From the NCBI GenBank assembly GCA_043817485.1, contig JBDRGX010000132.1, positions 1-11,982 of the forward strand: a stretch of DNA of 11,982 nucleotides. Reading direction: 5' to 3'. Within the stretch, counting starts at the first letter, position 1. Every line of letters begins with the position of its first letter. Source of the stretch: JBDRGX01 sp043817485 [NCBI: bacterium] (GTDB taxonomy: Bacteria; JBDRGX01). A program made the translations under genes and the position numbers. A model generated the notes under the pieces. That model ran no database searches. It was not told the origin of the DNA and saw only the letters and a program-made list of their open reading frames with translations. This document shows, piece by piece, positions 1-8,256 of the stretch.

Positions 1-864
1 TTGCCAATTTATGCAATAGCAAATGAACCAAGTACAATGGATACTGAAAAAGAAAAAAAAATAGATAAAGAAAAAATAATCAAAGAAGTAGTAAAATTAG
101 AAGAATTATTACAAAAAGCTAAGGAAATAGTTGCAAAAAGTGAAAATAAAGCAGCAAAAGAAATTTTAGAAAAAGCAAAAGAAGTATATTCAGAAGTAAA
201 ACAAGCTGTTAAAGACGAAACTTATAGAATAGCCATAAAAAAAATGAAAGTAGCAATTACTTTAGCTCAAAATGCAATTAAAATTGCAAAAGAAAAAAAC
301 CCTTCAACAGTAACACCAGGTATTCCAAAAATAAAAGGAAAAATGGAACGATTATCTAATCTTTTAGAAAGAGCAGGAAAAATTGTAGAAAAAAGTGAAA
401 ATGAAAAAGCAAAAGAACTTTTAGAAAAAGCAATTACAAAATATGAAGAAGCAAAAGAAGCCATTAAAGAAGAAAAATATGGATTAGCTTTACAAAAAAT
501 TGAAGTAGCAATAAATTTAGCTCAACATGCTATTAGAATTGCAAAAGGACAACCATCTTTAATAATTAAAAAAGAAATGTCAAAATTAGCTCGTCTTTTA
601 CATAAAGCAAAAAAAATTGTAATTATAAGTGGGAATGAAGAAGCAAAAGATCTTTTAAAACAAGCTGTTGAATTAGCTAAAGAAGCAAGAGAAGCTATTA
701 AAGAAAAAAAATATGAATTAGCATTGGAAAAAATAAAACAATCTGCTAAATTAGCCATACAAGCTATTAAAATGGCTCGACCAATAGGAGATACTACATC
801 TGATCCAAATTTATTAGAAGATAAATCTAATGAAGAAATTTTAGCAAATACAGAATTAAAATAA
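1..864 (+). CDS. Secreted helical repeat protein, 5'-truncated by the window edge
   Basis: I do not recognise the family. The readable 287 residues are dominated by Lys, Glu, Ala, Ile and Leu and hold three tandem copies of a unit of about 67 residues: roughly 30-96, 115-181 and 193-259. Each copy reads as three amphipathic helices: a leucine-pair helix (LL at 36-37, 121-122, 199-200) ending at an Asn turn, a helix of the type AKELLEKA..Y.EAKEAIKE.KY, and a helix of the type LAL.KI..AI.LA..AI.IA. Linkers rich in Pro and Gly separate the copies. The frame opens with TTG as the first three bases of the window and then PIYAIANEP. The A-I-A/N stretch matches a signal peptidase I site, so TTG is more likely a Leu codon at the end of a signal peptide whose start lies upstream. 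A periplasmic or surface scaffold or binding role is conceivable, but no catalytic motif is visible. The gene ends at TAA (862-864) just before a strong terminator. Confidence 0.75.
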   Translation: MPIYAIANEPSTMDTEKEKKIDKEKIIKEVVKLEELLQKAKEIVAKSENKAAKEILEKAKEVYSEVKQAVKDETYRIAIKKMKVAITLAQNAIKIAKEKNPSTVTPGIPKIKGKMERLSNLLERAGKIVEKSENEKAKELLEKAITKYEEAKEAIKEEKYGLALQKIEVAINLAQHAIRIAKGQPSLIIKKEMSKLARLLHKAKKIVIISGNEEAKDLLKQAVELAKEAREAIKEKKYELALEKIKQSAKLAIQAIKMARPIGDTTSDPNLLEDKSNEEILANTELK

Positions 865-1049: not shown

Positions 1050-2987
1050 ATGAAAGAAAAATTTTCTAAAACAGAGAATGCAAAGCCTCCACAAAAACAA
1101 AAAGATATTTTAGAAAAAGTTAAATCTTTTGGCCCTGTCCCTAATTTAGAAGAATATGTTCAACCAGATTGGTGGCGATCCATTTTCAATTCTATTTATT
1201 TAAAAACAGATGCAGATGTAGTTGATGATGAAAATATTACCAAAAATGAAATAAATATTTTTTTAGAAATTCTTAAATTATCACAAGAAGATCCTATTTT
1301 AGATTTATGTTGTGGACAAGCACGACATACTATTGAATTAACAAAAAAAGGATTTATAAATATTACAGGATTAGATCGTTCACACTATTTAATTCAAAAA
1401 GCAAAAACACAAGCAAAAAAAGAAAATTTAAATATTAAATTAAAAGAAGGAGATGCAAGAAATCTTCCATTTTCTCCAGACACTTTTAAAGCAGTTATGA
1501 TATTAGGAAATAGTTTTGGTTATTTTGAAACAATGGAAGATGATTTAAGAGTTTTAAAAGAAGTTTTTAAAACTTTAATTCCATGGGGAAAACTTTTGAT
1601 TGATGTAACTGATGGAGCGTATTTAAAAGAAAAATTTCAACCAAGATCATGGGAATGGATAGATAAAAAACATTTTGTTTGTAGAGAAAGATCTCTTTCT
1701 TTAGATAAACAATGCTTAATTTCAAGAGAAGTAGTTACTCATGTAGAAAAAGGAGTTATTGCTGATCAATTTTATGCAGAAAGACTTTATACTCGTGAAA
1801 TTCTAAATGAAATTTTAAAATTAGCAAATTTTACAGATATTACTTTCCATTGTGAAATATCTCCAAATTCTCAACGAAATCAAGATTTGGGAATGATGGA
1901 AAAACGAATTATTACCACAGCTATTGCTAAAAAAAATTGGGCTCCAATTAAAAAGAAAAAAAATGCAGTAAAAAATGTAGTTGTTGTTATGGGAGATCCA
2001 TCAAAACCAGATATTTTAAAACCATTATGTATTTTTGATGAAGATGATTTTTATACTATTGATCAATTAAAAAGTGCTTTAAGAGAATTTAAAAATTATC
2101 AATTTACTTATTTTAATAATCATGATACATTATTTCAAGATTTATTAAAAAATAAAACTAAAACAGATTTTATTTTTAATTTATGTGATGAAGGTTATAA
2201 TAATGATGCACGGAAAGAGCTTCATATCCCTTCTATGTTCGAAACACTTGATATTACATATACTGGTTCTGGTCCTCAATGCCTTGCTTTTTGTTATGAT
2301 AAATCATTAGTGCGTGGAATTGCAAATGAAATAGGAATTCCCGTTTCAAAAGCTTTTTTTATTAAACCAGAAGATATTACTTTTGATCTTCCTTTTGGAT
2401 TTCCAATTCTTGTTAAACCTAATTTTGGTGATTCAAGTTTTGGAATAACTCAAAAAAGTGTAGCAACTAATATTGAAGAACTTGTTAATGCCATTACAGA
2501 AATTAGAGAAAAATTTGGTTATGATAAACCACTTCTTGTAGAAGAATTTTTAACAGGAAAAGATTTAAGTGTAGGAATAATAGGAAATCCTCCAGAATCT
2601 TATACAGTTTTACCTATTATTGAAGAAGATTATTCTTTACTTCCTCAAAATCTTCCTAAAATATGTGGTTATGAAGCTAAATGGATTCCAAAATCACCAT
2701 ATTGGAATATTAAATCTATTCCAGCTAATTTACCAGAAGAAACTGAAAAATTTATTATAGATTGTTGTTTGAAATTATTTGAAAGATTAGAATGTAAAGA
2801 TTATGCAAGATTAGATTGGAGACTTGATGCAAACGGCAATCCAAAATTACTTGAAGTTAATCCTAATCCAGGATGGTGTTGGGATGGACATTTAGCAAAA
2901 ATGGCAAAATTTGCTGATATTTCATATCCAGAAATGATAAAATTTATTTTACAAGCAACAGAACAACGATTAAAAATTCAAGAATAA
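1050..2987 (+). CDS. Fusion of SAM-dependent methyltransferase and D-Ala-D-Ala-ligase-like ATP-grasp enzyme
   Basis: Two enzymes in one 645-residue cytoplasmic chain. Residues about 40-295 form a class I SAM methyltransferase: motif I is LDLCCGQ (84-90), the acidic end of strand 2 is the Asp in GLDRS (D109), GDARNLPF lies at 134-141, and the strand-4 region is VMILGNSFGYF. Residues about 305-640 form an ATP-grasp domain like the C-terminal part of Ddl: FNLCDEG (376-382), YTGSGP (404-409), VKPNFGDSSFGI (455-466, lysine K456), EEF (498-500), RLDWR (587-591) and LEVNPNPG (601-608) with the metal-binding Glu and Asn. ATP-grasp enzymes make amide or peptide bonds through an acyl phosphate. The GGxSxE..VS motif that binds the first D-Ala in true Ddl is not visible; the equivalent place reads VVMGDPSKPD. 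A substrate other than D-Ala is therefore likely. No neighbour betrays the pathway. The fold assignments are sure; the product is unknown. Confidence 0.88.
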   Translation: MKEKFSKTENAKPPQKQKDILEKVKSFGPVPNLEEYVQPDWWRSIFNSIYLKTDADVVDDENITKNEINIFLEILKLSQEDPILDLCCGQARHTIELTKKGFINITGLDRSHYLIQKAKTQAKKENLNIKLKEGDARNLPFSPDTFKAVMILGNSFGYFETMEDDLRVLKEVFKTLIPWGKLLIDVTDGAYLKEKFQPRSWEWIDKKHFVCRERSLSLDKQCLISREVVTHVEKGVIADQFYAERLYTREILNEILKLANFTDITFHCEISPNSQRNQDLGMMEKRIITTAIAKKNWAPIKKKKNAVKNVVVVMGDPSKPDILKPLCIFDEDDFYTIDQLKSALREFKNYQFTYFNNHDTLFQDLLKNKTKTDFIFNLCDEGYNNDARKELHIPSMFETLDITYTGSGPQCLAFCYDKSLVRGIANEIGIPVSKAFFIKPEDITFDLPFGFPILVKPNFGDSSFGITQKSVATNIEELVNAITEIREKFGYDKPLLVEEFLTGKDLSVGIIGNPPESYTVLPIIEEDYSLLPQNLPKICGYEAKWIPKSPYWNIKSIPANLPEETEKFIIDCCLKLFERLECKDYARLDWRLDANGNPKLLEVNPNPGWCWDGHLAKMAKFADISYPEMIKFILQATEQRLKIQE

Positions 2988-6996: not shown

Positions 6997-8256
6997 ATGA
7001 CAAAGAAAAAAGTAGAAGAAAAGAAAAACAAAATTTATATTATTGATGTAACTAATAGAGATGGAGTTCAAACTTCTCGTTTAGGATTAGCAAAATTACA
7101 AAAAACAATTATAAATCTTCATTTAAGTAAAATGGGAATTTATCAAAGCGAATTTGGATTTCCTTTTACTCATCATGAAACAAATTATCTTAATGCAAAT
7201 CTTGAATTAGTTAAAATAGGTGCATTAAGTCCAATGATTTTAAGTGGCTGGATTAGAGCAATTCCAGTTGATGTTGAAACATCTATGAAAATGACTAAAA
7301 TACAACATCTTAATATGTCTATTTCAACTTCTCCTCAAATGTTAAAATCAAAATTTAGCGGTGGTAAAACAAAAAAAGAAATTTTAAAAATGATGACAAG
7401 TGCTGTATCTCTTGCAAAAGAAAAAGGAATAAAAACAGTTGGTGTAAATGCTGAAGATGCTTCAAGAACTGAACTTGATTTTTTAATTGAATTTGCAAAA
7501 GCTGGAAAAGAACATGGAGCAGATAGATTTAGATATTGTGATACACTTGGTTATGATGATCCTTTTACTATTTACGAAAGAATAAAAATTATTGCTCAAG
7601 AAACTAATATGCCAATAGAACCACATTGTCATAATGATTTAGGATTAGCAGTTGCTTGTTCTATTGCAGGAGCCAAAGCAGCTATTGATGCTGGAGTTGA
7701 TGCATATATAAATACTGGTATTAATGGAATGGGTGAAAGAGCTGGTAATGCAGATTTATTATCAGTAATTTTAGCTCTTAAAAAATCAAGTGGTTTTGAA
7801 AATAAATATATTTTAGATGAAAAAATAAAACTTTCTTGTATTTGGAAATTAGCAAAATATGCTTCTTATTCTTTTGATGTACCTATTCCTATTAATCAAG
7901 TTGGTGTAGGTGATAATGCTTTTGCTCATGAATCTGGGATTCATGCAGACGGTGCCTTGAAAAATAGAAAAAATTATGAACTTTATGATTTTGAAGAATT
8001 AGGTAGAGGAGATTTAGAAACAGTTGAAACTGGTAGAAGAATTACTGTTGGAGAATATAGTGGGATTAAAGGATTTAGAAATGTATATGAAAAATTAGAA
8101 ATAAAATTTAAAGATGATAAAGAAGCAACAGAAATTCTCGAATTAGCAAGATTTGCTAATGTTCATACTCAAAAACCATTAGTAGAAGATGAACTTCTTT
8201 TTATTGCTAAATATCCAAAAATTGCTAAAAAAATCTTTACAATGAGTCCAGAATAA
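6997..8256 (+). CDS. DRE-TIM acyltransferase: homocitrate / 2-isopropylmalate / Re-citrate synthase family
   Basis: Condenses acetyl-CoA with a 2-oxo acid in a metal-dependent TIM barrel. Visible motifs: the DRE-type RDG at 21-23, SEFGFP (51-56), the metal-binding HCHND (210-214) and GMGERAGN (244-251), then HESGIHADGAL (311-321). At 419 residues it has the barrel and the communication subdomains but not the full LeuA leucine-feedback domain, which makes it shorter than a typical LeuA (about 500) and a little longer than NifV. The first motif reads NRDGVQT rather than the usual LRDGEQ, with Val in place of Glu (residue 24). I recall NRDGVQ-type proteins annotated as homocitrate synthase or Re-citrate synthase, but the acceptor (pyruvate, 2-oxoglutarate, oxaloacetate or 2-oxoisovalerate) cannot be read from the sequence. 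A good AGGAGA (6981-6986) lies 10 nt before the ATG. gltX follows after 14 bp, probably on the same mRNA. Confidence 0.85.
   Translation: MTKKKVEEKKNKIYIIDVTNRDGVQTSRLGLAKLQKTIINLHLSKMGIYQSEFGFPFTHHETNYLNANLELVKIGALSPMILSGWIRAIPVDVETSMKMTKIQHLNMSISTSPQMLKSKFSGGKTKKEILKMMTSAVSLAKEKGIKTVGVNAEDASRTELDFLIEFAKAGKEHGADRFRYCDTLGYDDPFTIYERIKIIAQETNMPIEPHCHNDLGLAVACSIAGAKAAIDAGVDAYINTGINGMGERAGNADLLSVILALKKSSGFENKYILDEKIKLSCIWKLAKYASYSFDVPIPINQVGVGDNAFAHESGIHADGALKNRKNYELYDFEELGRGDLETVETGRRITVGEYSGIKGFRNVYEKLEIKFKDDKEATEILELARFANVHTQKPLVEDELLFIAKYPKIAKKIFTMSPE

What the first reader, a model, noticed from the sequence alone, without database searches (positions are those of the whole stretch)
1050..2987. 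Methyltransferase fused to a Ddl-like ATP-grasp enzyme that lacks the Ddl substrate motif
A SAM methyltransferase (about residues 40-295) and an ATP-grasp ligase (about 305-640) are joined in one uninterrupted frame with the catalytic motifs of both preserved. The ligase half has the ATP and metal sites of D-Ala-D-Ala ligase but no GGxSxE..VS motif for the first D-Ala. Two linked activities suggest sequential tailoring of one small molecule or peptide: methylation and amide-bond formation. No pathway neighbours are present, so the product is open. Of all genes here, this is the best candidate for undescribed chemistry.
Basis: partly seen in the sequence, partly recalled or inferred. Interest (0 to 1): 0.6.

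Follow-up and report, generated by a model that had tools for sequence, protein, structure and literature searches.

The report
Methyltransferase-ligase fusion enzyme in uncultured microbes
One gene encodes a two-part enzyme that probably joins two small molecules by an amide bond and adds a methyl group; nearly the same protein turns up, patchily, in many uncultured bacteria and archaea, so it may make a shared metabolite that nobody has described.

Summary
In detail: 1050-2987 (+) is one 645-aa frame, a class I SAM methyltransferase joined to a D-Ala-D-Ala-ligase (Ddl) fold ATP-grasp ligase. It is a real family: 584 relatives in one scan; the best 80 cover both halves at 64-74% identity, come by title from metagenome bins, and span bacteria and archaea. 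It is not a Ddl: ATP/Mg residues are kept, but the E. coli DdlB positions Glu15, Tyr216 and Ser281 (D-Ala recognition, recalled) are mostly Pro, and always Trp and Gly. 18 of 26 carrier genomes have a separate canonical Ddl; seven of the other eight are archaea. The gene is patchy (2/60, 8/294, 10/395, 26/148 genomes) without a conserved neighbourhood. One candidate partner: a DoeB/AstE-like deacylase, beside the fusion in two unrelated bacteria. Among 837 genomes of three phyla its subfamily occurs in five, all fusion carriers (44 of 837 are). Against this, most carriers lack it and the two proteins' distances do not co-vary. The nearest solved methyltransferase by sequence is NmbA, which N-methylates bacillithiol's cysteine. 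Most likely a self-contained synthase of a small methylated amide, with an optional hydrolase. Substrates and product are unknown. Nine PMC searches listed no description.

The parts
1050..2987 (+). Gene for the 645-aa methyltransferase/ATP-grasp fusion
   Evidence: Single open frame; 80 relatives kept at 64-74% identity
1146..1925 (+). Class I SAM-dependent methyltransferase half, residues 33-292
   Evidence: Pfam; its own AlphaFold2 model has pLDDT 86.1, pTM 0.84; VIA-align Z 24.1 to 3d2l (rmsd 2.5, 223 aligned) and 21.8 to NmbA 9ri2 (rmsd 3.6, 201 aligned)
1296..1322 (+). Methyltransferase motif I, ILDLCCGQA (residues 83-91)
   Evidence: L84 D85 C88 G89 invariant in 43 proteins
1503..1526 (+). 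LGNSFGYF loop (152-159), motif IV/V region
   Evidence: L152 G153 N154 S155 G157 F159 invariant; SFGYFET also in the NmbA alignment
1965..2972 (+). Ddl-fold ATP-grasp ligase half, residues 306-641
   Evidence: VIA-align Z 29.3 to 1ehi (rmsd 3.2, 309 aligned), 28.7 to E. coli DdlB 2dln (rmsd 2.6, 291 aligned)
1992..2012 (+). GDPSKPD (315-321) in place of the Ddl first-substrate motif GGTSAER
   Evidence: DdlB Glu15 aligns with P320 (Pro in 32 of 42 rows); D321 in 42 of 42
2178..2195 (+). NLCDEG (377-382), family-specific motif
   Evidence: N377 D380 E381 G382 invariant in 43
2433..2450 (+). SSFGIT loop (462-467), counterpart of DdlB Ser150-Ser151
   Evidence: S463 in 42 of 42, S462 in 40 of 42
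2670..2684 (+). YEAKW (541-545): DdlB Lys215 kept as K544, DdlB Tyr216 replaced by W545
   Evidence: K and W in 42 of 42 rows
2850..2891 (+). LEVNPNPGWCWDGH (601-614): Mg ligands E602 and N604 kept, DdlB Ser281-Leu282 replaced by G613-H614
   Evidence: G613 and H614 in 42 of 42, E602 in 41 of 42

Best explanation
A self-contained biosynthetic enzyme. The C-terminal half uses ATP to activate a carboxylate as an acyl phosphate and couples it to an amine, as Ddl does, but with substrates other than D-alanine. The N-terminal half uses SAM to methylate, most likely a nitrogen of, one substrate or the product. The output is a small methylated amide (dipeptide-like). Some carriers add a DoeB/AstE-like deacylase that hydrolyses it or a derivative. 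Shown here: domain folds (predicted), retained ATP/Mg residues, replaced Ddl pocket residues, constant fusion, independence from a canonical Ddl, spread across bacteria and archaea, and restriction of the deacylase subfamily to fusion carriers in the samples searched. Inferred: catalysis itself, N- rather than O- or S-methylation, small-molecule substrates, the order of steps, and the role of the deacylase.
For: The ligase half has the full Ddl fold. K418, K456, E498, R587, D589 and N604 match DdlB ATP/Mg/catalytic residues in 42 of 42 rows (E602 in 41; DdlB Glu187 becomes Asp505 in 42), while the Glu15, Tyr216 and Ser281 positions are Pro (32 of 42), Trp (42 of 42) and Gly (42 of 42). Methyltransferase half: the nearest PDB sequence is 9ri2, which names as the bacillithiol methyltransferase NmbA; many rows of the fold list are named N- or C-methyltransferases of small molecules, glycine sarcosine N-methyltransferase among them. 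Canonical Ddl coexists in 18 of 26 carriers and lies 202 bp away in L002. Of the ligase matches that I count as fusions, all but two lie in open frames of 632 aa or more; the two exceptions are fragments in G799, one starting at base 18 of its contig, the other covering ligase positions 1-182. Among 1016 ORFs of 81 sequences no neighbour family recurs in more than six, so the enzyme seems to need no operon. The deacylase is a same-strand neighbour on opposite sides in L008 and L068, and its subfamily (E up to 1e-60) occurs in 5 of 837 sampled genomes, all five fusion carriers; hypergeometric p 7.8e-4 in the Asgard sample (4.4e-3 without its centre) and 0.025 in the Desulfobacterota sample.
Against: No substrate or activity evidence. 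The deacylase subfamily is present in only 7 of 59 carriers tested (five more have only distant relatives, 23-31% identity) and in 5 of the 44 carriers of the three samples, 0 of 8 in the Planctomycetota one. Its distances do not track those of the fusion (rho -0.09, p 0.68, 7 of 9 pairs; rho -0.47, p 0.99 with one of each close pair). The four Asgard deacylase carriers look like two related pairs, by their fusion proteins, so the p-values overstate independence, and I chose this gene because it was adjacent twice. The methyltransferase resemblance to NmbA is about 22% identity. MAG contamination and incompleteness can blur single-genome statements.
Confidence: 0.52

Rival explanations
1. A divergent D-Ala-D-Ala (or D-Ala-D-X) ligase of cell-wall synthesis that has picked up a methyltransferase.
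For: Best NCBIfam and PDB matches of the ligase half are Ddl and Van ligases; same fold.
Against: PF01820 absent at E up to 0.1; Ddl models score about half their cut-offs or less (121.8 against 243; 117.6 against 245.65); Glu15, Tyr216 and Ser281 positions replaced; a canonical Ddl is present in 18 of 26 carriers, and the eight without are seven archaeal bins and one Aminicenantes bin.
Confidence: 0.03
2. The ligase half attaches an amino acid to a protein, peptide or cell-surface polymer and the methyltransferase tailors the same macromolecule.
For: ATP-grasp ligases that modify proteins and peptides are known (RimK, graspetides; recalled). In L026 the fusion lies 20 bp after a sugar-transfer-associated ATP-grasp gene (PF14397) and 5 bp before a 287-aa protein without a Pfam match at E 1e-5. 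Lack of a metabolic operon fits a target encoded elsewhere.
Against: The ligase half is of the Ddl class, whose known substrates are small (recalled); no shared neighbour that could be a precursor peptide was seen, though ORFs under 60 aa were not called; L026 is one locus.
Confidence: 0.17
3. The methyl group is a carboxyl methyl ester that protects or activates an acid for the coupling step, as in cystargolide biosynthesis, so methylation is cryptic and the final product need not be methylated.
For: In cystargolide assembly the methyltransferase CysG forms a methyl ester of the acid precursor, and the text notes an earlier case of SAM-dependent activation of an acid for amide formation (passages of PMC11427300). 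A hydrolase partner would fit removal of the group.
Against: Many of the closest methyltransferases in the fold list are named N- or C-methyltransferases; a Ddl-type ligase activates the acid with ATP and needs no ester (recalled).
Confidence: 0.12
4. It makes a low-molecular-weight thiol: cysteine coupled to a second acid and N-methylated, like N-methyl-bacillithiol.
For: NmbA, nearest PDB sequence to the methyltransferase half (E 3.2e-27), N-methylates the cysteine of bacillithiol (abstract and passages of PMC12719100). A review expects further novel thiols in archaea (passages of PMC7278568).
Against: About 22% identity only; NmbA itself does not act on glutathione or glycine; stand-alone methyltransferases in the Zixibacteria sample score higher than NmbA against the family profile (155 against 96 bits), and the best of them lies beside arginase-family and deoxyhypusine synthase genes; I did not test for thiol-system genes in carriers.
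Confidence: 0.1

Closest known systems
D-alanine--D-alanine ligase (Ddl; E. coli DdlB) and VanA-type ligases
   Same: Fold of the ligase half and the ATP/Mg residues
   Different: Glu15, Tyr216 and Ser281 positions replaced, no PF01820 match, fused to a methyltransferase, occurs in archaeal bins in which no Ddl was found
NmbA, bacillithiol N-methyltransferase (PDB 9ri2)
   Same: Nearest PDB sequence to the methyltransferase half; fold Z 21.8, rmsd 3.6, 201 aligned
   Different: About 22% identity, a single-domain enzyme; reported for bacteria with the bacillithiol pathway, no archaea with the complete pathway (passages of PMC12719100)
Glycine sarcosine N-methyltransferase (GSMT, PDB 5him)
   Same: Class I N-methyltransferase; Z 22.2, rmsd 3.3, 225 aligned; sequence E 3.1e-12 for the entry group with 5gwx
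   Different: 17% identity; not fused
DoeB, N-acetyl-L-2,4-diaminobutyrate deacetylase (for the partner protein)
   Same: Only NCBIfam match at E 1e-10 or better of the two partner deacylases scanned (L068, L146); DoeB 6twl and 6twm are third and fourth of nine PDB matches
   Different: 72 and 58 bits against a cut-off of 402.7, so not a DoeB; substrate unknown
Paired Ddl-like ligases of Planctomycetota beside a KamA-type aminomutase and a GNAT
   Same: Among the nearest relatives of the ligase half without the methyltransferase in that sample (up to 193 bits)
   Different: Score less than half of the most divergent fusions there (394 bits); no methyltransferase half detected in the loci scanned; other partners

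Membership tests
D-alanine--D-alanine ligase | Ddl three-domain ATP-grasp fold | tested here: met
   VIA-align Z 28.7, rmsd 2.6, 291 aligned to E. coli DdlB 2dln, on a predicted model
D-alanine--D-alanine ligase | ATP/Mg and catalytic residues (DdlB K97, K144, E180, R255, D257, E270, N272; roles recalled) | tested here: met
   K418, K456, E498, R587, D589, E602, N604; 41 or 42 of 42 rows. DdlB Glu187 is Asp505. The alignment around DdlB His63-Asp69 is gapped and was not used
D-alanine--D-alanine ligase | Glu15 in GGxSxExxVS, binding the first D-Ala (role recalled) | tested here: not met
   GDPSKPDILK; Pro in 32 of 42 rows at the Glu position
D-alanine--D-alanine ligase | Tyr216 and Ser281 of the substrate pocket (roles recalled) | tested here: not met
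   Trp and Gly in 42 of 42 rows
D-alanine--D-alanine ligase | Curated family cut-offs | tested here: not met
   121.8 against 243 and 117.6 against 245.65 bits; PF01820 not hit at E up to 0.1. Pfam PF07478 (C-terminal domain) is over its cut-off (93.4 against 24)
D-alanine--D-alanine ligase | Forms D-Ala-D-Ala | not testable with these tools
   Needs an enzyme assay
Class I SAM-dependent methyltransferase | Rossmann-like fold with motif I | tested here: met
NmbA (bacillithiol methyltransferase) | At least 35% identity to NmbA, the network criterion in PMC12719100 (25% in its genome search; passages) | tested here: not met
   22% in the structural alignment
NmbA (bacillithiol methyltransferase) | Host makes bacillithiol (BshA, BshB, BshC) | not tested
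   No search made
DoeB (partner protein) | TIGR02994 equivalog cut-off | tested here: not met
   72 and 58.3 against 402.7 bits for two members
MADS anti-phage component mads_2 | Match to the whole mads_2 profile | tested here: not met
   Match (E 1.3e-14) covers only profile positions 251-416 of 492, on protein residues 39-208, the methyltransferase part

The most novel reading that the evidence does not exclude
One gene makes a complete, undescribed methylated amide metabolite (osmolyte, thiol or redox/signalling molecule) that is shared, through horizontal transfer, by uncultured bacteria and archaea, Asgard archaea among them; in some of them a dedicated DoeB-like deacylase breaks it down.
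Probability: 0.35. Interest if true: 0.85.

Novelty: new variant of a known kind. Interest (0 to 1): 0.6.

Why it matters
A protein about 67% identical (median of the 78 best) across bacteria and archaea, with no conserved operon and no cultured host among its best 80 relatives, points to a product with a strictly fixed structure that has escaped chemistry because its hosts are not grown. A single gene that may suffice for the product can be expressed and assayed directly, and the carrier-restricted deacylase gives a second, independent handle on the same compound. It also adds a case of the Ddl fold with its substrate pocket rebuilt, probably for another amide.

Tried and rejected
Divergent Ddl: rejected on residues, family cut-offs and coexisting canonical Ddl.

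MFS exporter as partner: a DHA2-type exporter lies directly downstream in L016, L047 and L147, and 11 of 60 carriers have a match at E 1e-70 or better, but 31 of 118 genomes of the Desulfobacterota sample have one too, so it is not specific.

Co-evolution of deacylase and fusion: no correlation of distances (seven of nine pairs, because my motif pattern missed the G792 and G802 deacylases; one search shows that these two align over nearly their whole length, with the same or closely similar active-site segments).

Other recurrent neighbours (THUMP-type gene, TrmD, M32 peptidase, macro domain; named by eye except the last two) occur in two to four loci and mostly follow one lineage. Defence: only a match of the methyltransferase part to mads_2. 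RNA elements: none at gathering threshold in the window.

Horizontal transfer: bacterial and archaeal rows interleave (seven changes of label) but well-supported branches force only two (quick LG+G4 tree of 105 rows, 97 different, SH-aLRT support only). Five duplicate loci were removed beforehand (110 to 105 rows), but duplicates of G311, G350, G293 and several Asgard genomes remain; L025, whose title and place disagree, is not counted.

Rows dropped: L010, L014 and L072 yielded no fusion ORF in my ORF picker; they are among the 80 but not among the 78 aligned proteins, and distances to the fusion exist for 78 of 81 sequences. The profiles A1-A3 use 42 relatives or fewer plus the window.

The genome samples are phyla that I chose because a carrier was their centre, so their frequencies are not those of prokaryotes at large. 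In the Planctomycetota sample 65 of 294 genomes matched the ligase profile at E 1e-35; I count as fusions the eight with 394 bits or more. itself warns that an empty answer has no positive control; a carrier outside that sample (G779, locus L037, a Phycisphaerae bin by title) does match.

Literature: nine searches that ran (some lists were cut) listed no paper whose title or abstract start describes this fusion; the passages shown of PMC11237513 (archaeal fusions), PMC12719100, PMC6282198 and PMC7278568 do not mention it. The library lacks most subscription journals. The comparison of A3 with A4 was uninformative.

Full report
The thing itself. The frame 1050-2987 (+) encodes 645 aa without a stop. 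Pfam places a class I methyltransferase at 83-180 and the Ddl C-terminal domain at 448-634, but not the Ddl N-terminal family. NCBIfam Ddl models match at about half their cut-off or less (best 25 of 76 shown). AlphaFold2 on 43 relatives gives pLDDT 81.8 (pTM 0.54, so the relative placement of the two halves is not reliable). The ligase half superposes on Ddl and Van ligases over its whole length (1ehi Z 29.3, rmsd 3.2, 309 aligned). The methyltransferase half, predicted alone (pLDDT 86.1, pTM 0.84), superposes on small-molecule methyltransferases (3d2l Z 24.1, rmsd 2.5, 223 aligned; YunM 24.1, 2.9, 230; GSMT 22.2, 3.3, 225; NmbA 21.8, 3.6, 201).

The family. I extracted 78 proteins (77 loci plus the window; three loci dropped); pairwise identity is 59-99%, median 67%. 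The fusion is patchy: 2 of 60 genomes of the phylum of G019 (a Zixibacteria bin), 8 of 294 of the phylum of G003 (a Planctomycetes bin), 10 of 395 of the phylum of G021 (a Desulfobacterota bin), 26 of 148 of the Asgard phylum of G014. The ligase halves counted here sit in open frames of 632 aa or more, apart from two fragments in G799. More divergent fusions exist: G028 at 831 bits, and three in the Planctomycetota sample at 394-415 bits in the ligase half, of which two were checked for the methyltransferase half (362-364 bits). I found no unfused version of this subfamily in these samples; the next ligases in the Planctomycetota sample score 193 bits or less.

Not a Ddl. Against E. coli DdlB (fetched) the ATP, Mg and catalytic residues are kept in 41 or 42 of 42 rows, Glu187 becoming Asp. 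The Glu15 position is Pro in 32 of 42, Tyr216 is Trp in 42 of 42, and Ser281-Leu282 is Gly-His in 42 of 42 (that these recognise D-Ala is recalled, not tested; the alignment around His63-Asp69 is gapped and not used). The invariant replacements suggest a pocket fixed for another substrate. Canonical Ddl (PF01820, over its cut-off) is found in 18 of 26 carrier genomes; the eight without it are seven archaeal bins and one Aminicenantes bin, which may be incomplete. In L002 a canonical Ddl lies 202 bp from the fusion.

Neighbours. In the window the gene lies between a charged repeat-like ORF (1-864) and secA, with bioF, a homocitrate-synthase-like gene, gltX, gatA and lgt further on. Across the relatives nothing is conserved: apart from the fusion itself the commonest cluster occurs in 6 loci. 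Two recurrent neighbours crossed lineages. The MFS exporter proved common in the background and is dropped. The other is an AstE/aspartoacylase-family deacylase (PF24827). It lies upstream of the fusion in the TA06 bin L008 (61 bp from the longest frame, 213 bp from the methionine nearest the window's start) and 69 bp downstream in the Desulfobacteraceae bin L068, on the same strand; the two are 61-63% identical. Seven of 59 carriers have it at 54% identity or more, five others only distant relatives at 23-31%. Searching whole samples at E 1e-60 gave 1 of 395 (G690), 0 of 294 and 4 of 148 genomes. All five carry the fusion, which 44 of these 837 genomes do (the same handles appear in the paired searches). 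Caveats: G014 was the centre of its sample and, with G018 and G690, was known positive beforehand; G792/G802 and G014/G018 look like related pairs; p-values. In G690, G014, G018 and G792 the two genes are not neighbours: they lie on different contigs, or 1.2 Mb apart in G792; in G802 they lie on different contigs. The closest curated model is DoeB of ectoine breakdown, far below cut-off; DoeB structures are among its PDB relatives. In all seven aligned members the HGDE, DLNRSFPG, DLH and LELG segments, which I recall as the active site of this family, are intact.

How it probably works. The ligase forms an acyl phosphate and then an amide, as Ddl does (established for the fold, recalled). The methyltransferase half resembles N-methyltransferases of small molecules, with NmbA first by sequence (22% in the aligned region). 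A metabolite that is made by one gene and hydrolysed by an optional deacylase fits a stored or protective compound better than a cell-wall precursor, but nothing here names it. A shared mode of spread is likely: bacterial and archaeal proteins interleave in the tree, though deep branches are weak and only two changes are forced. The deacylase and the fusion do not show the same pattern of distances, so if they work together they are acquired separately.

Literature. Passages of PMC12719100 show NmbA as an N-methyltransferase of the bacillithiol cysteine, and its main text does not contain 'ATP-grasp'; passages of PMC11427300 give a precedent for carboxyl methylation in peptide assembly; passages of PMC7278568 expect novel archaeal thiols. 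Nine searches that ran listed nothing that describes this fusion in title or abstract start.

Noticed in passing
L122:4303-7943, L119:6464-10195, L117:5988-9962: In Planctomycetota genomes, two Ddl-like ligases sit side by side with a KamA-type lysine 2,3-aminomutase (TIGR00238 over cut-off for L122; Pfam LAM_C for L119; by eye for L117) and, in L122 and L119, a GNAT acetyltransferase, suggesting a beta-amino-acid peptide or osmolyte cluster.
   Followed up: partly
L093:1231-5671, L094:521-4961: A 716-719 aa protein with a Ddl-like N-terminal part and about 390 further residues without a Pfam match is followed by a gamma-glutamyltranspeptidase and an N-formylglutamate amidohydrolase gene in two genomes (Pfam for L093; L094 by eye).
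   Followed up: partly
L084, L085, L087, L091: Stand-alone relatives of the methyltransferase half (about 131-158 bits) lie beside an arginase-family gene, in some with a deoxyhypusine synthase, suggesting a polyamine link (Pfam run on L084 only, the others by eye).
   Followed up: partly
L026:6495-10204: In this locus the fusion lies between a sugar-transfer-associated ATP-grasp gene (20 bp) and a 287-aa protein (5 bp) without a Pfam match but with weak similarity (best E 3.1e-5) to some of the fusion proteins, a possible ligase operon.
   Followed up: no
window 1-864: Strongly charged, repetitive Lys/Glu-rich ORF without any NCBIfam match at E 1e-10.
   Followed up: no
window 6997-8256: Homocitrate/isopropylmalate synthase-like gene that stays below every NCBIfam cut-off listed (259.9 against 462.9 for NifV), so its product is open.
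   Followed up: no
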